A DNA stretch of 64,000 nucleotides from Rhypophila decipiens (taxonomy: Eukaryota > Ascomycota > Sordariomycetes > Sordariales > Naviculisporaceae), in contig MU858064.1 of the NCBI GenBank assembly GCA_033297075.1, forward strand, positions 124,001 to 188,000. The letters run 5' to 3'. The notes under the pieces are model-generated. The model ran no database searches. It had not been told where the DNA came from and saw only the letters and a list, made by a program, of their open reading frames with translations. The translations under genes were made by a program, and so were the position numbers. Shown here in pieces: positions 30,527 to 40,471 of this stretch; within the stretch, counting starts at the first letter, position 1, and the number at the start of each line of letters is the position of its first letter.

Positions 30527-32239
30527 TCAACTCCATCCCGGCAATAACATGACTCCATGCTCAGCGCTGAGCTTGACCTTCTCGCCCACAATATTCAGCG
30601 TAACCTCCCATTTGAGAAGATACTTGACCGAGATATTAAACGTCGCAAAGCTTGGCGCGAGAACCCATTTCCAGTGAGGATGCTTCACATCCCACTTGTT
30701 CACCTTGGCCTCAGGATCGATACCCAGGCCGGTGACACAATCTTGTTGGAGACGAAGATTCATTTTTTCTCCCAGCTGTAAGAATGACCCATCGCCACCC
30801 GGTCCCGAACTCCACGAGCCCTCATTGGTCGGATGATAGGTATACCCCGGCACCTTTTCCTCCTCCGAACTCACCCTCGGGCTCCCACCATCCGATGAAG
30901 CAAGACTATACCCTGCCTCTTCTTCCTTACTCTTGCGGCTTGAAGTCGACTTGTTGCTCCTCCCGCTCCAACTCAATCTATGCTTCTTTTTCTCGGGCTC
31001 CTTCTCGCTCACAAAACCTTTCTCATCTCCAGCAGTCTCGGCAGACAATCCTTCCTTTCCCTGGGCAACACCTCTAAAGCCACCGACACAAGGAACAACC
31101 ACCTCTCCGCGCCCGTCCTGCTCCCAACTCGATCCCTGCCCAAACTCGGCCCCGACATAGACCTTTCCGTCTGCACAATAATTCCCCCGCTTTTTACTGT
31201 ACTCCTCTTCAATCTTGCCATCTACCCGTTCCAAGATCCTCAGTCTAATTGACTCGAGCGTGACAGTTTGCTCGACACCCTTGATCGCGTCACTGCTAAG
31301 GTCTCCTCCAGGACCATCAGACAAGATCCTTATTCCAAGCGGCATTTCATTGCCAAGTTGCAAGACTGTCGGAAACTCCATCTCCACCGCGAACCCAAAT
31401 TTCGGGACCGATGAAGACTTGAACAGTTTCGAGAGGTGCTCATGTGTGCTGAGCTTGGCATCCTTACCCCTACCAGGAAGTAAGCGCTGGGAAGAGACAG
31501 ACTGGTTGGGAATGACATGTCTTAGGATGCCAAAGTCATGAACTGGCGCGGCCGGCGGGTTCGACACCAAGATGGGGAGACAAGCATGCTTGCTTTTCAG
31601 GTCTGTCTTTGGCTGCCCTGAAAAAAAAGACGTCGAGGCATGTTCCTCTGTCAAGGTAGCTTCGAGGTAATACTCTACCCAGGCGTCGAGCTGATGGTCC
31701 GAATAACCAGGGTGGAAGTTGAAGCTTGCCGGGAGAGGCGTGTTGGTGAGTGTATCTTGCAGTGACTCGGGCTCGATGGGCAGGAAGGACCTGGCTGGAT
31801 TTTTCTCGTGCAGGTTGGAGGATGTAGCAGAGGCATGAGTCGGGATTTGGAAAGAAAACGGCCAGGTGTTGGTTGTCATGGCCGCTGCCGATGGGAGGAT
31901 GCCATGGTCCGGAGCAATGTGCAGGGGACCGTCGAGGAGGGTTTGTTTTTCCTCGAACAGGATGACTTTGCTGTAGTAGTGGGTGGTTGTGGTGGCGTTG
32001 CCGGATCGCCGGGTTTTGGCGTAGTGCACGGCTGATCGTCCGATGAGGGCAATTTCGATGGTTCCATGGGGGGCGATGATGGGCTCTTCGCGGGATACGA
32101 AGCCGGTTATAGTGTCGGCTGGGAGGAAAGTTGTCGGTTGGCCTGAGACCGTCACCGGGGGGACGTTGAGGTGGATGGCCAGTGGGGGCCCTGATTTGGG
32201 CTTGATGGGCTCCAGGTCAATGCGGTCTCCTCTAGTCAT
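30527..32239 (-). CDS. Arrestin-like protein (570 aa)
   Basis: Intron-free frame. The N-terminal half has the arrestin_N pattern: HLNVPPVTVSGQPTTFLPAD, then ITGFVSREEPI, IEIALIGRSAVHY and a WPFSFQIP strand (residues ~120-130). The C-terminal part keeps a second β-sandwich-like run (NMRLQQDC-like strand, WDVKHPHWKWVLAPSFATFN, ISVKYLLKWEVTLNI). Between them, residues ~385-480 form a Ser/Lys/Glu-rich, probably disordered and phosphorylated linker. Fungal α-arrestins bring Rsp5/Nedd4 ubiquitin ligase to plasma-membrane transporters; this protein has no obvious PPxY motif, so the adaptor role is uncertain and it may belong to the uncharacterised arrestin-like group. Located between the GTPase and rhodanese genes without obvious functional link. 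Confidence 0.78.
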   Translation of the reverse strand: MTRGDRIDLEPIKPKSGPPLAIHLNVPPVTVSGQPTTFLPADTITGFVSREEPIIAPHGTIEIALIGRSAVHYAKTRRSGNATTTTHYYSKVILFEEKQTLLDGPLHIAPDHGILPSAAAMTTNTWPFSFQIPTHASATSSNLHEKNPARSFLPIEPESLQDTLTNTPLPASFNFHPGYSDHQLDAWVEYYLEATLTEEHASTSFFSGQPKTDLKSKHACLPILVSNPPAAPVHDFGILRHVIPNQSVSSQRLLPGRGKDAKLSTHEHLSKLFKSSSVPKFGFAVEMEFPTVLQLGNEMPLGIRILSDGPGGDLSSDAIKGVEQTVTLESIRLRILERVDGKIEEEYSKKRGNYCADGKVYVGAEFGQGSSWEQDGRGEVVVPCVGGFRGVAQGKEGLSAETAGDEKGFVSEKEPEKKKHRLSWSGRSNKSTSSRKSKEEEAGYSLASSDGGSPRVSSEEEKVPGYTYHPTNEGSWSSGPGGDGSFLQLGEKMNLRLQQDCVTGLGIDPEAKVNKWDVKHPHWKWVLAPSFATFNISVKYLLKWEVTLNIVGEKVKLSAEHGVMLLPGWS

Positions 32240-32732
32240 GGTGGATGATTATGAAATTTGATGATGCTTTTGTAAAAGGTGAGTCCATGTTGAAGGACAA
32301 CAAGATGTTTTTATATCGACTCGATCCTTGTGGGGCCCTTTGATTGGTTCCGTGGCGGAGCTGCTGTGCCCCAATGGCGTGTCTTGGCAGTTTATGAGGC
32401 GAGACGTTGGGAATGGCTTCAACCCTAAACGAGGAAGGCGGGCGTGGCGCGGCGCGGTAAACACGACTAGTGAGGCGTTTAATCGGAGGGACGGGATGGC
32501 GAGAGCGGGTGGTGCCAAGACTTTGCGACTCTCGAGATATTTCAGGCAGCTCCAAGTGTACAGTTGAGATGCCTATCACCACTCGCCAAGCGTTTTTGCT
32601 TATTAACTGATCCAATACTTTCATAAGGGTGGTGGGCCGATGCGATGATAATGATAAGACTCCCTGAGGTGATTCAGACCCCGCAGCCTGGTTGTCTTCA
32701 GACTAGACATGGAACGGGCACCAAGAAACTCC
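32240..32732. other. Promoter of the arrestin-like gene and 3' flank of the rhodanese gene
   Basis: Contains no supported gene. Overlapping short frames at 32328-32567 are shadows of promoter sequence. Confidence 0.4.
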
Positions 32733-33947: not shown

Positions 33948-36900
33948 TCAGCCCCTGGTAATGGGTGGCAGATCTGCTTCAACCTTGACCGTCGGCATCC
34001 CTCCCACGAGACCCCTCCAGACCCTCTCATAGTCATTGTCGACCTCTTCCTCGCCATCATCCAGGCCACCAGCTGCCCCCAATCCCCTTCCAGCAGCCAT
34101 TTTCTTTACAGCCATGGTGAGTGTCGCCCTGTTACCAATCACAACCACACCACATTTTGCCCGCGTCATGGCAACATTCAGTCGGCGTAGGTCCGTCAAG
34201 AAGCCAATGACTCCATGATCATTGCACCTAACCGTCACAAACACTACCACATCGGCTTCTCGTCCCTGAAAACCATCGATGCTACAGACTTCCAAGTTGC
34301 TGATTCCTGCGAGCTCCCTCCTGAGCACCTCAACCTGCCGAGTGTATGGCGTCAGGACGGCAATAAACTGGTTTCCCAGTCCATCTGGTTGATCCGCTAG
34401 GCCTCCAGCGCCGGTAGTACTCTTGGAAGAAATGCTCGACTTGGCGGTTCGCAGCAGCTTGCAGACTTGAAGACACAGCTTGGTCTGACCAGAATTGCTC
34501 TTTGACTTGTGGCCTAGATCCTCCTTGGACGAGCAGTCAACAAACACCATCCTGGCAACATCATCCCGGCCTTTCAGACCAGCCGCCGGGGGCCATGGAA
34601 ACATCGACTCAAGCAGTGGCCGAGCATCAGCCGAGACGCCTGTCTTCAGGGCAGAGCTGTAAAACTCATCTGAACTAAACTTGCAGATGGCCGCGTGCAT
34701 GCGATATTGCGTATCGAGCATCACTTTCTGAACACCGCCTCCGCCTGTATCGTTTGTCTCGGCCGTGTAGAGCCTCTCAAACAAGGAAATATCAAAGCCC
34801 TGTGCCGCCGCGTGGTTCGTCACCGTGGGCCGAAGCTGAACGTGGTCACCCACCAGAATGGCCTTTTGACACCCTTTCACCAGTGGCACAAGGGATGCGG
34901 GTTCGGTCTGTTGAGACGCCTCGTCAATGATGACGATGTCGAAAGACCGTTTGCGGAGCAGACCAAGACCTGCGCCGCTGCAGGTTGTAAAGATGAGAGG
35001 TGATGCTTTGATGCGCTTCTCTGCAGCCTTTCGAGCCGCAAAGCTAGAATGAATTTCTGCCCCCGCCATGGCATCACATGTATAGATTCGCAAAGCTTCT
35101 GACAGTTTCCGCACCTGTGTTTTCGAGCATCGCGTTAGCGCCCATATTCATTGCGTCAGAATGTACACGATAACGTGGAGACAAACCTCTGTAGAAACTC
35201 TCAAGGGACCCGGGAACTGTCCGTTCCCAGAAGTGTAGTCGAGGTACCTCTGCATGACGTTGTCTACAGCGTTATGCGTTGGTGCCGTGACCAAGACCCG
35301 AGCCTTGGGATATGCAAAAAGCAACTGCTTGAGAATCTCAACAATAGTTGACGTCTTCCCTGTGCCTGGTGGACCCCATAGACACGTCAGCCGGGCGTCC
35401 AAGGCAGTGCTGATTGCCAACTTTTGGCTGCCGTTCATTTTGCCCATAGGTGCAACGGATAGGCCGGGCACACGTTCCAAGTCCTCTTCACAAGCAACGA
35501 CTCCAGACTCTGGAATTATCAAGTCCACAACGCCACAACAGAGCTCCCTATCATTCGCTAGCTTGACCACTGCGTCAAGCATGGTTTGCGTCATTGTATA
35601 CAACCCGAGATGCTCCAGGACCCAGGAGCATTCAGCCAGGAAGGGCGGTGGCGGATGGAGACACTGGAACTTGGCCTTGCCCTGTTGCGATGCCAATACC
35701 AATGCGTCCATGGAGTACTTTCCTCTCAATAGCTTGTTGGAAGGCTCACTAGCGGCAGTCAGTCTCACATGCGCCGACTGCTCCGGTGCCCCCCCCCCCC
35801 CCTTTGCGTCTATCCGGATATCAGCTTCAACAACCGCTCGACCTTCGTGTTCCTCTGGTAGACGCCGGAGCTGTAGAAGGTCCTTGCGAGTCTGACCCTG
35901 CTCTGCCGCCTCGCCGATGTGATCCAAGGCAATGCCAATCAAGCAGCGAACAAAATGTTGCGTAATTCCAGGGCTAGCTGCCAGGATCCGCTCGCTCTGA
36001 CGCTCAAGACAATCGAGTAAAAGGTCCAAAGCTAGGTCGAGCGAGCGAATGGTCAGTGAACTTAGTTTGACCAAGTCGGCAAAGTTTCTCAGCGTCATGC
36101 TGCTGGTGCGAGCAAGTACACGTTTGAACGGAGTCATTATGAGATCTTGCATGCGGCTAGCCGAAAGGATGCAGGCAGTCAGAATTTCGGGGCTGTGAGC
36201 CTCCAGTGTAGTTGCAAGGTCCTCGGATAAGACCGCCATACCGTCCAAGTTGATACTTGTGAATATTACTGCCAGTCCTGGGCTCCTGGCGAGGCAATCA
36301 AGCATTGCTCTTAGAATATCCCGTCTAGTAGGCGAAGCCAGGAGGTCTGCTGGATCTTCCCTGACAAATTCGTCCATAAGGTAACCGAAAACCTCAACTA
36401 GGGTATCCTTCTGGCCGTAGTCGAGCAGGAACGAGAAGACGGTCTCATACTGGTCGATCAACTCGAGGTTGTCGAGAGCCTGTAAAGTGTGCTCTCTGCA
36501 GATGGCGGTTATGTAATCCGGAAGAGAACTCCAGTAAACGCCATGCAACGTGGGCAGCGCATACTCTCTTGGTGTTGGGTCGAAGAGCGGGAGCACCTCG
36601 GTAGTGTCAATGTATTCGAGCCACAGGTCTAGGCTCTGCATCGATTTGACGTCTCTGTTGCTAATAACGTATATCTCCTGGAAGACATCGTTACGTTAGA
36701 CCTCGCCTGAGCCTGTTCATTTCGAATGTCCAAAGCAGAACCTACCGCGCCGAGTATCCCGTTCCTATTGACTCTCCCAATATGCGTCTCCAACCCACGA
36801 CCAAACTTGTCGAGGGCGACACTGCAGCGACAGTCATAGTTCTCACCGTCCTTCAAAGTCTGATTTCTTGTTCGTCTTCGGTCCCCCGGTCGCTCAATGT

Positions 36901-39522
36901 CCCGGTACCTACTATCATCGCCCCGAGACCGGCACATATACACCCATGTGTTGGCTCTCTTCCCGTCATACAGCTGGAACATATTATCGTCGCAGTAGAT
37001 GTGATAGTTTTTCTTGGTCGGGCGCGATAGCTGGCTCGCCTGTTCATCACCACGAGAGTGAGGAAAAGCAAACAATCTCGCCGCATCGTCCACTCGAATT
37101 TCCGATGAAGTCTCGATCTTTCGCGGGATATACATGGCCAAAGTCAGCCGTTCGTCAACACGAAAAACGACCAGCTTGCGGTGGAACGTTTCAAGTGCCT
37201 TGGACAAAGTCTCTGGGAACGAAGCAAGTCGCTCGTATGACGAGTCATAGATGCGCTTCCACCCAAACGCTGGGTCGTCGAGCTTGAACTGGCACAGTTC
37301 ATGCACCTCGAAAAGGGACGACTGACAAAGGGCATTGCGGACAAGGCTGTGTCTGAGCTCATTTGGCGGAGGTAGGGTCAGAACCCATGTCTTCTCCTCG
37401 CTTGTCAGCAAGTTAAAGTCGAACAGGTGGACGAAATCGGCAAAGGGTGTGCTGTTCTCACTGCACCAACGAAATACAAGTCTGATCAGCTCAAACTCGG
37501 ACATTGCAACATTGTCACGGGTCAGAAGTAACTCCATGGCATCAAAATCGTAAGAGTCAATATCATTTCCACTCTCGGACTGAGGTCGTCTTGCGTTTCC
37601 CGCCGCGTCGTGCAGTACGTCCAAGATGAAAGGAGTCGCTTCCGGAGGTACCTCGGGCGGCTCTCGAAGTCGCGGTGGGATGTTTATCGTGTTCCCGTCA
37701 ACGCAAGTCGAGTAAAGTCGGTTGAGTTCTTGACACTCGGCACTCATTGGACCTTTTACCCGTGCCCATCTCATATGGAGGACCTTGAGACGACCCATGG
37801 AGCCGTCGTTGTATCTGGCAAAGTACTCCAATCGGTCTTCGTCGGTGATGGGTTTGAAGGTGACGGGCTCCTTGGCACCAGGATATTCAGCCGGCTGGGA
37901 GACCGTTGAAGGGATCAGATCAGGATCCCAGCAAACAAAGACTGTGAAAATATGACATCAGCAACTAGTAGGACGACATTTGCTCAGGCAGGATACTCAC
38001 ATGTGTCCCCATCAAGGTCGCCTCCTGACATCATGTCTGCAGGGGGTCGCCGTCCGCGTGTTGGAAAGACAATGCAGTCTACCAGGTGGGCTAGTTCGTC
38101 CTTCTCAACCACTTTCAACTTCTGTAGGTCCCCTGGATGCCAACACGGATTTCTGGTCACGAGAACCTCTGTTCCCTTCAAGGCTCGTGGAACACCGTCA
38201 ATCTCACTTGTTATCTTGACTGCGCACTCGCCCTCTCCGAGGACGCCCCAAGCGTCGCATATGCCAAAAACCAAGCGGGATTTCTTGATCATGATTCTTG
38301 TCTTTCTTTTGCCATCATCTTTGACAAGCTTGCTGTACTCTTGGTTGACTAGTTTCAGGACCTGAGGTTTAACCTCATCCAAGGATTCCATGATCAGGCG
38401 TTCTGCGAGCATATGTTCATTGACACAGGTGAGGAACTGGAAGGCGGTTCGGGCGTCATTGACTGCGGCGTTGAGAAAGGAAAAATACTCTTCCTGTTTT
38501 CGGAGCAATGTGTCGCTGGAAATCCCCAGGGAGTGGAGAAGCAGAATGACTTCGTCGTTCAGATGTCCGAAGCGGTACGGCTGTTGCTCACATGCGTGTC
38601 AACGCTATGATCATGAATGACGAGCGATCATGATAGACAGACAGACCTTGGAGTATTCGACTACTGCAAAGGACAAGTCATCACCACCACTAAACTTCTT
38701 CATTGACTTTCGGAACTTGATCCATGTCTTTCCCTTCATGGCGCGATCCACCATCAACACACCTTTATAGCCACGGTATCGAATCTGGAATACAGAGGGC
38801 GTGTACCGTGTGTTCTGGTGGATAATCCGCATGCGCCTGGCAATGTCCTGAGCAAGTCGGGGAGATACAAGACCGCAACCATCGGTGAAGTTGTAATCGG
38901 CTGTTTCGATATCAGGAATGTCCTCACAGAGTTCAGGTCTGATGTCCATGGCGGCGCGGGTTTCGGAAAAGAGCAGGCCGATTCGCTTGGCCTTTTTCTG
39001 AACAGTCTTTAACTTGCTCAAGTCGCCGAGCCCGTTGACCTTCTCCGTGATCTCTTCTTTGGAAGCGGCAAAGAGAATACAAGTGCGTGATTTGAGCTGG
39101 CTGTTGCTGTGGCCATAAAAGTTGTAGTGGACCCCTTGGATAGAGACACCAGCACATAACAGTTTGACGACGTAGTCGGTGCATTCCCGCGACGTTCCGG
39201 GTTGGTTATTGATATTGGCTGCTCTTTCAGAGCCATGGCACGGCAGAGGGCGAAAGGATGAGACCGAGACAACGATGAATTTGTCGAGAGGTTCGCCAGA
39301 AATCCCACGATTTGGACTTGACTTTTGAAGTCGAATGATGATCTGATGCCGGCCATCCCTTGTTTCGAGGACAACAGCTTTGATATATCCCTCGTGGTTC
39401 AGCTTGGCCGCTGATGGAAGATCGGGAACGTGGTACCTCCAGTCGGTGTCGGAGACGCAGACGGCGTCTTGAAGGACGCTATGGAAGCTCGACGGCTTTG
39501 GATCCGACATTTGCTGGGTCAT
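33948..39522 (-). CDS. RNA-dependent RNA polymerase fused to UPF1/ZNFX1-like SF1 helicase (~1769 aa)
   Basis: Five exons, 38647-39522, 38001-38580, 36746-37941, 35187-36677 and 33948-35114, with GT-AG introns of 66, 59, 68 and 72 nt, keep one frame from the first ATG to the stop. Residues 1-~790 are a cellular RdRP: YGHSNSQLKSRTCILF, RIGLLFSETRAAMD, FTDGCGLVSPRLAQDIA, FQIRYRGYKGVLM, SMKKFSGGDDLSFAVVEYSK, and the catalytic loop MSGGDLDGDTFFVCWDPD (DLDGD codons 38005-38019). Residues ~885-1250 are mostly helical. The helicase follows: Walker A WGPPGTGKTSTIVEIL (~1318), VTAPTHNAVDNVMQRYL, Walker B IIDEASQQTEP (~1446), GDHVQLRPTV, DTQYRMHAAI, SIDGFQGREADVVV and LNVAMTRAK. Known partners of these types are separate proteins (Rdp1/Hrr1; SAD-1/SAD-3). 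Expected role: making double-stranded RNA for silencing. An ATG at 39609 would add 29 residues. Two separate transcripts cannot be excluded. Confidence 0.85.
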
Positions 39523-39838: not shown

Positions 39839-40471
39839 ATGTCTACAAACCCATGCAACATCTACCTGGTTGGTGCTCAGTGCACCGGCAAGACCACGCT
39901 CACCAACGCCCTTTCAGCCCACTTTGAACATTCACTTCCTCCTGAAAGTCGACCAGGAGTCATCAAAGAAGTGGCCAGGACAGTCCTTGTCAAACACAAG
40001 TTCACGGCGGAGGACATGGTTTCTTCTCCCGATCGCTGCCTCCTGCTGCAAACGCTCATTCTCGAAGCTCAAGCACAGGCGGAAAGGGAATGTCTTGATA
40101 GCGGCAAACGCTGGTTTGTCGCTGACCGGTCAGGGGCAGACCCTCTTGTCTATGCCATGGCATATATGTCTGCTGAATCTGCCATCGGTGGCGGTGGAGA
40201 ATCTCTGTTAGGAACAGCGGCATGGACTGAGTTGCGTGGACGATTGGCCCAGTCCCTGATTGTCGTATGTGAAGCAGGCATGGAGTGGCTCATCGACGAC
40301 GGGGTGAGGCTGATGCCTAAGAATATGGATGAGTGGATTACTTTCCATCGGCTGTTTTGTCAGTTTTTGGATAAGCAAAGTCTCAGATACGTGGTGTTGC
40401 CGAGGCATATGGTTGACATCCAGAAGCGAGTGGATTTTGTCTTGTCAGAATGGCGGAAAAGGGGACGATAA
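39839..40471 (+). CDS. P-loop ATPase/kinase-like protein of the AAA_28 (NadR-like) group (210 aa)
   Basis: An intron-free frame. The P-loop VGAQCTGKTTLTNAL is at residues ~9-23. WFVADRSGADPLVYA (~95-110) supplies the Walker B-like acidic residue in the position used by NadR-type nicotinamide riboside kinases and related AAA_28 proteins. IKEVARTVL and LVEAQAQAE-type helices follow the family pattern. The start is the ATG at 39839, 9 nt after an in-frame alternative, because it is closest to the P-loop and has the better context (GATATGTC). Related fungal proteins are uncharacterised; a kinase for a small metabolite is plausible but not shown. The gene shares its promoter with the RdRP-helicase gene. 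Confidence 0.75.
   Translation: MSTNPCNIYLVGAQCTGKTTLTNALSAHFEHSLPPESRPGVIKEVARTVLVKHKFTAEDMVSSPDRCLLLQTLILEAQAQAERECLDSGKRWFVADRSGADPLVYAMAYMSAESAIGGGGESLLGTAAWTELRGRLAQSLIVVCEAGMEWLIDDGVRLMPKNMDEWITFHRLFCQFLDKQSLRYVVLPRHMVDIQKRVDFVLSEWRKRGR

What the first reader, a model, noticed from the sequence alone, without database searches (positions are those of the whole stretch)
33948..39522. RdRP fused to a UPF1/ZNFX1-like helicase in one gene
Four introns with good signals keep one frame through a complete RdRP core (DLDGD) and a complete SF1 helicase. The two activities are known as separate partners: Rdp1 with Hrr1 in the fission-yeast RDRC, SAD-1 with SAD-3 in Neurospora meiotic silencing, and RdRP EGO-1 with ZNFX-1 in C. 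elegans. A natural fusion supports a direct, fixed-ratio coupling of template remodelling to dsRNA synthesis. I do not know of a published description of this fusion.
Basis: partly seen in the sequence, partly recalled or inferred. Interest (0 to 1): 0.9.

Follow-up and report, generated by a model that had tools for sequence, protein, structure and literature searches.

The report
RNA-copying enzyme fused to RNA motor
This fungal gene makes one protein that joins an RNA-copying enzyme used in gene silencing to an RNA-walking motor; the combination is real and occurs in many fungi, but the same fusion had already been noted in Fusarium.

Summary
On the minus strand, five exons (39522-33948) encode a 1769-residue protein: a eukaryotic RdRP (DLDGD at 480-484) followed by a complete superfamily-1 helicase. 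Relatives run through all four splice junctions, and exon 4 alone runs from the RdRP tail into the motor. The interpretation needs three corrections. (1) It is not unpublished: Fusarium graminearum FgRdRp5 (FGSG_09076) was described with this architecture in 2015 and knocked out again in 2024, when loss cut exonic siRNAs and ascospore discharge. (2) The motor is not of the Hrr1/SAD-3/ZNFX1 type. It lacks the ZNFX1 domain, its nearest relatives are UPF1 and SMUBP2, and this genome keeps a separate ZNFX1-type helicase, a QDE-1 and two further RdRPs. (3) It is common: 119 of the 120 listed hits (of 458) carry both parts, and it also occurs in Agaricomycetes; trees of the two halves fit one old origin. 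My searches of open-access papers found no account of its Dikarya-wide spread or of its UPF1-type stalk and barrel. Most likely it is a silencing polymerase with a built-in 5'-to-3' motor that strips or delivers templates. The ex-siRNA role is published for Fusarium; the motor's role is inferred.

The parts
33948..39522 (-). whole gene: five exons, 1769-aa RdRP-helicase fusion
   Evidence: exon join in one frame; 92% identity over 100% to P0001
37661..39285 (-). RdRP domain PF05183, residues 80-579 (two introns inside)
   Evidence: Pfam 3e-118; Arabidopsis RDR2 3.8e-60
38005..38019 (-). catalytic motif DLDGD, residues 480-484
36746..37660 (-). RdRP C-terminal region, residues 580-884
   Evidence: matched in fusions of both phyla; 17 of 161 positions (580-740) and 26 of 195 (741-935) at 90% or more; structured in the model of P0247
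35985..36518 (-). helical domain between RdRP and helicase, residues 938-1115
   Evidence: AlphaFold model of exon 4, mostly pLDDT 90 or more here; 0 of 175 positions (936-1110) reach 90% conservation
35601..35972 (-). stalk helix and 1B-type beta barrel, residues 1120-1243
   Evidence: model; aligned with SEN1/SETX/UPF1/ZNFX1
35352..35375 (-). helicase Walker A GPPGTGKT, residues 1319-1326
34818..35438 (-). helicase RecA1 core, residues 1298-1480 (intron 35186-35115 inside)
   Evidence: Pfam AAA_11/AAA_30/AAA_19
34128..34793 (-). helicase RecA2 core, AAA_12, residues 1489-1710
   Evidence: Pfam 1.8e-48
34914..34925 (-). helicase motif II DEAS, residues 1445-1448
   Evidence: 107 of 112 ungapped rows, of 130
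34155..34187 (-). helicase motif VI RRLNVAMTRAK, residues 1691-1701
   Evidence: exact letters in only 3 of 104 ungapped rows, commonest RRMNVALTRAR
38581..38646 (-). intron 1, 66 nt
   Evidence: GTCTGT...CAG; relatives align across it
37942..38000 (-). intron 2, 59 nt
   Evidence: GTGAGT...CAG; relatives align across it
36678..36745 (-). intron 3, 68 nt
   Evidence: GTAGGT...CAG; relatives align across it
35115..35186 (-). intron 4, 72 nt; retention would end the protein 12 residues on, before motif II
   Evidence: GTTTGT...CAG, 12 residues; many short gene models of relatives end at or soon after this site
35789..35802 (-). run of 14 G on the coding strand (two extra Gly against P0001, in frame)

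Best explanation
It is a full-length, probably active orthologue of Fusarium FgRdRp5: a cellular RdRP of the small-RNA silencing machinery whose C-terminus is a complete UPF1/SMUBP2-type SF1B helicase (stalk, 1B-type barrel, two RecA domains). SHOWN: the architecture, the conserved motifs, its presence in many Dikarya and (in Fusarium, by others) that loss lowers exonic siRNAs and ascospore discharge. INFERRED: SF1B motors of this family walk 5'-to-3' on single-stranded RNA (established knowledge, not tested here), while an RdRP reads its template 3'-to-5'. The tethered motor most likely loads on an mRNA, strips bound proteins and structure while moving towards the 3' end, and so brings the polymerase to a bare 3' region from which it copies back to make dsRNA for Dicer. 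In its parts it works like the coronavirus pairing of an RdRp with a UPF1-like helicase (nsp12-nsp13), in one chain, though the two polymerases are unrelated (recalled).
Against: The searches named in the report turned up no biochemistry of any member. In the 2015 study, single and double RdRP deletions showed no growth, virulence or stress phenotype (PMC4515635 passages). The ex-siRNA effect of Fgrdrp5 is weaker than that of Fgrdrp1 or 2, and its mutant also changes ribosome-biogenesis genes, so silencing may not be the whole of it. N. [quoted passage not shown]
Confidence: 0.6

Rival explanations
1. The motor does not prepare templates but acts on the polymerase or product: it pushes the RdRP back, ends synthesis or separates the product strand, or serves an NMD-like or rRNA surveillance role, as the Fusarium authors speculate for rRNA and NMD.
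For: 5'-to-3' polarity on the template opposes RdRP movement (inference); ribosome-biogenesis genes change in the Fgrdrp5 deletion and the authors suggest rRNA processing or an NMD link.
Against: ex-siRNAs fall, not rise, in the deletion; no CH domain for UPF2 binding is present (PF09416 absent).
Confidence: 0.25
2. A natural cis-version of RDRC/MSUD: the RdRP is fused to an Hrr1/SAD-3/ZNFX1-type helicase.
Against: No PF25396; ZNFX1 far weaker than UPF1 by sequence; a separate ZNFX1-type helicase stands at G000:C6; fusion helicases form a clade apart from it (long branches).
Confidence: 0.05
3. Two neighbouring genes wrongly joined: separate polymerase and helicase transcripts.
For: Some public models are split: P0159 and P0247 of Apiospora phragmitis list the same longest-contig length. 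No cDNA was seen here.
Against: Exon 4 is one open frame of 497 codons from the RdRP tail into the motor; full-length colinear relatives in many fungi; 34 of 36 probed proteins, many of them short or one-sided models, match part of the linker.
Confidence: 0.04
4. Much of the message keeps intron 4 (or the Walker A intron in mushrooms), so that a common product is RdRP plus linker without a working motor, and the full fusion is a regulated isoform.
For: Of models printed because they were short, 13 of 17 ascomycete or unnamed ones end at or soon after the intron-4 site and 10 of 14 basidiomycete or unnamed ones end soon after WGPPG; in the window, retention stops the protein after 12 residues.
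Against: Gene callers without intron models give the same picture; 98 of 130 aligned relatives are 1600 aa or longer.
Confidence: 0.06

Closest known systems
FgRdRp5 / Fgrdrp5 (FGSG_09076) of Fusarium graminearum, and FFUJ_03638 of F. fujikuroi
   Same: RdRP then helicase/ATPase domains in one protein; P0048 (FGSG_09076) is 51% identical over 99% of the window protein.
   Different: The passages read call the motor 'DEAD-like' and 'AAA' and do not mention a stalk or 1B barrel; the window is from another order (nearest hits Rhypophila; orders recalled).
UPF1 (NAM7) and SMUBP2/IGHMBP2 helicases
   Same: Stalk, 1B-type barrel, two RecA domains; best sequence and fold matches.
   Different: No UPF1 CH domain (PF09416) and no UPF1_1B_dom match (PF18141); own UPF1 is a separate gene (L027); about 34% identity to it.
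Hrr1 / SAD-3 / ZNFX1 helicases
   Same: SF1 helicases that work beside an RdRP in silencing.
   Different: No ZNFX1 domain in the fusion; the genome keeps a separate ZNFX1-type gene.
QDE-1, plant RDR2 and the genome's other RdRPs
   Same: PF05183 with the DxDGD active site.
   Different: Fusion RdRP is nearer to RDR2 (3.8e-60) than to QDE-1 (3e-23); its residues 116-580 match RDR2 452-931, so the long RDR2 N-terminus is missing. It lies apart from the three other RdRPs here.
Amphioxus RdRP BL02069 with an AAA_12 domain
   Same: RdRP plus AAA_12 in one predicted protein (PMC6396948 legend).
   Different: Not compared by sequence; kinship unknown.
Coronavirus nsp12-nsp13
   Different: Separate proteins; viral RdRp unrelated to the two-barrel cellular RdRP (recalled). 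Analogy only.

Membership tests
FgRdRp5-type RdRP-helicase fusion | PF05183 RdRP with DxDGD | tested here: met
FgRdRp5-type RdRP-helicase fusion | C-terminal SF1 helicase (AAA_11/AAA_12) in the same chain | tested here: met
FgRdRp5-type RdRP-helicase fusion | colinear homology over the whole length with FGSG_09076 | tested here: met
   P0048, 51% identity over 99%
[quoted passage not shown]
   fusions are one side of a branch against the genome's three other RdRPs (97% SH-aLRT, long branches), but of those three only QDE-1 could be named; published for FgRdRp5
FgRdRp5-type RdRP-helicase fusion | needed for ex-siRNA and ascospore discharge | not testable with these tools
   reported for F. graminearum
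UPF1 | N-terminal CH (UPF2-binding) domain PF09416 | tested here: not met
   absent in the fusion; present in own UPF1 L027
UPF1 | SF1B core with stalk and 1B barrel | tested here: met
   by fold:
UPF1 | sequence match to Pfam UPF1_1B_dom PF18141 | tested here: not met
   not listed at E up to 1; present in L027
ZNFX1/Hrr1/SAD-3 | ZNFX1 domain PF25396 | tested here: not met
   absent in the fusion; in the genome only at C6:1553-1882
ZNFX1/Hrr1/SAD-3 | helicase core nearest to ZNFX1 | tested here: not met
   UPF1 4e-52 against ZNFX1 1e-22; own UPF1 197 bits, own ZNFX1-type 75
RDRC-like complex | physical partner Argonaute or poly(A) polymerase | not testable with these tools
   needs pull-downs
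QDE-1 | orthology to N. crassa QDE-1 | tested here: not met
   3e-23 for the fusion against E = 0 for L025

The most novel reading that the evidence does not exclude
The RdRP-UPF1-type fusion is a distinct fungal RdRP lineage that arose once before Ascomycota and Basidiomycota parted (or earlier, if the amphioxus RdRP with AAA_12 is kin). It is a cellular one-chain counterpart of the nidovirus RdRp-helicase pair, little noticed because N. crassa lacks it; its motor carries the polymerase 5'-to-3' to the template's 3' end.
Probability: 0.4. Interest if true: 0.65.

Novelty: new member of a known kind. Interest (0 to 1): 0.4.

Why it matters
How a silencing polymerase gets a clean, correctly positioned template is an open question. 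A natural fusion that keeps its polymerase and motor motifs in many Dikarya makes it testable with two point mutants in one gene. It also corrects a tempting analogy: the fused motor is UPF1-type, not the Hrr1/SAD-3/ZNFX1 motor that partners RdRPs in model fungi, so fungi hold at least two RdRP-motor arrangements. The single gene itself is ordinary for filamentous fungi.

Tried and rejected
ZNFX1/Hrr1/SAD-3 identity of the motor: rejected. Free-standing halves: 36 proteins, chosen by me, many of them annotated with only one half, were probed with pieces of the window fusion and of four relatives. 34 of 36 match the linker (three of them, P0213, P0292 and P0295, gave query pieces themselves; P0219 matches it over 20 residues only). 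The two that do not (P0323, P0329) are short helicase models. I read the one-sided ones as split or cut models, but no DNA of theirs was seen. Frame break by the 14-C run: rejected, in-frame expansion.

Motif counts for DLDGD and Walker A are partly by construction: rows were chosen by loose patterns of these two motifs (130 of 330 proteins).
Full report
WHAT IS THERE. The gene lies on the minus strand. Joining 39522-38647, 38580-38001, 37941-36746, 36677-35187 and 35114-33948 gives 5310 bases, 1769 codons and a stop, in one frame. The introns are 66, 59, 68 and 72 nt and all begin GT and end CAG. At the base composition of the window, an open frame of 1769 codons has a chance of about 5e-36, and the 497 codons of exon 4 about 1e-10. 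Exon 4 matters most: it starts in a block conserved among the fusions (EIYVISNRD, residues 885-893) and runs without a stop through the linker to helicase motif Ia.

WHICH MOTOR. Among solved structures the helicase half is nearest to yeast NAM7/UPF1 (4e-52) and human UPF1, then SMUBP2 (9e-44), a SETX-like helicase, DNA2, SEN1, and only then ZNFX1 (1e-22). Among the fetched loci of the same genome its nearest paralogue is UPF1 itself (L027, 33.6% over 458 residues, 197 bits), then SEN1 and DNA2; the ZNFX1-type gene gives 75 bits. Of the AAA_12 hits, those on C58 and C2 were not fetched. The ZNFX1 domain PF25396 is absent from the fusion and found once in the genome, at C6:1553-1882, in the same frame as a helicase whose best solved match is ZNFX1 (3e-111). 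Published work calls Hrr1 the orthologue of ZNFX-1 (PMC9276528, passages) and of SAD-3 (PMC13136243, passages). So this fungus keeps its SAD-3/Hrr1/ZNFX1-type helicase apart, and the fused motor is another, UPF1-type, one. It is not an UPF1 orthologue either: the CH domain is missing.

WHICH POLYMERASE. The RdRP half is nearest to Arabidopsis RDR2 (3.8e-60) and far from QDE-1 (3e-23). The genome holds three other RdRPs: C52 is QDE-1 (E = 0); C55 and C24 are RDR2-like, C24 with a fungal PH-like domain, and were not assigned. There are four Piwi loci plus two pieces and three loci with RNase III domains, two of them with two domains each. The fusion is thus an addition to the RNAi set, not a replacement.

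HOW WIDESPREAD. The full-length search found 458 relatives, of which 120 were listed. Of these, 119 carry PF05183 and PF13086, and 111 carry PF13087 too (my count from the table). Species names cover Sordariomycetes, Leotiomycetes, Dothideomycetes, Eurotiomycetes, Lecanoromycetes and Pezizomycetes (classes recalled). Searches with each half, whose length limits shut out proteins over about 1550 aa, listed Agaricomycetes: Armillaria, Cerioporus, Mycena and Roridomyces with RdRP and AAA_11 but no AAA_12, and Rhizoctonia, Tulasnella and Ceratobasidium with RdRP, AAA_11 and AAA_12 in one protein. RdRP and helicase trees each place the basidiomycete fusions together (100% and 99%, one metagenome row inside) and the ascomycete ones together (92% and 85%), with the two Pezizomycetes outermost among the latter (quick trees, SH-aLRT only; 26 ascomycete rows chosen by me, window included). 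That fits one fusion before the two phyla parted and descent by inheritance; an old transfer is not excluded. Of 36 proteins probed, many of them short or one-sided models, 34 match part of the linker.

WHAT IS KNOWN. [quoted passage not shown] PMC11130915 (2024) notes ATPase domains in F. fujikuroi FFUJ_03638. PMC11237814 (2024) places Fgrdrp5 on its own branch and reports that deletion lowers ascospore discharge to 47.6%, antisense exonic sRNAs from 27.3% to 18.9%, and 5'-U 21-25-nt reads by about 32%. Its authors already mention SAD-3, Hrr1 and NAM7. [quoted passage not shown] crassa. PMC6396948 reports an amphioxus RdRP with AAA_12. Passages of PMC4182546, PMC6572790, PMC9769868, PMC11105155, PMC5805368, PMC5031192 and PMC6145500 showed no such fusion. 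Ten paper searches brought up no account of the Dikarya-wide spread, nor of a UPF1-type stalk and barrel in it; subscription papers are mostly not held, and most listed papers were not opened.

MECHANISM. Shown: one chain, two conserved enzyme cores, and (published) a partial role in ex-siRNA in Fusarium. Inferred: UPF1-type motors are 5'-to-3' (established knowledge) and RdRPs read 3'-to-5', so a tethered motor on the same strand would run against the polymerase. Two uses fit: strip and deliver (the motor runs first, clears the message and brings the polymerase to the 3' end), or control (the motor pushes back or releases the polymerase). The fall of ex-siRNAs on deletion favours the first but does not single out the motor. 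Two point mutants would decide.

VERDICT. Observation confirmed; interpretation partly supported; a new member of a known kind. The wider story, an old fungal RdRP lineage with its own UPF1-type motor, deserves more notice than it has had.

Noticed in passing
35115-35186 (intron 4); relatives P0085, P0090, P0091, P0095, P0097, P0110, P0113, P0127, P0129, P0130, P0132, P0133, P0152: Of models printed because they were short, 13 of 17 ascomycete or unnamed ones end at or soon after the intron-4 site, and 10 of 14 basidiomycete or unnamed ones soon after WGPPG. Either gene callers fail there or intron retention yields a motor-less isoform.
   Followed up: partly
35789-35802: Run of 14 C in coding sequence before the motor; two extra codons against P0001, so its length differs between close relatives. 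A slippage-prone site.
   Followed up: partly
P0162 and P0169 (metagenome proteins): They branch apart from both Ascomycota and Basidiomycota in the RdRP tree and carry linker homology; host unknown, possibly an earlier fungal lineage.
   Followed up: no
36518-35985, residues 938-1115: Confidently modelled helical domain in which 0 of 175 positions (936-1110) reach 90% conservation; kin not identified.
   Followed up: partly
39839-40468, + strand: Neighbouring gene on the opposite strand with an AAA_28 domain (9.4e-24), starting about 320 bases from the RdRP start: a shared promoter region is possible.
   Followed up: no
30530-32248, - strand: Weak arrestin N-terminal match, below Pfam's cut-off.
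   Followed up: no
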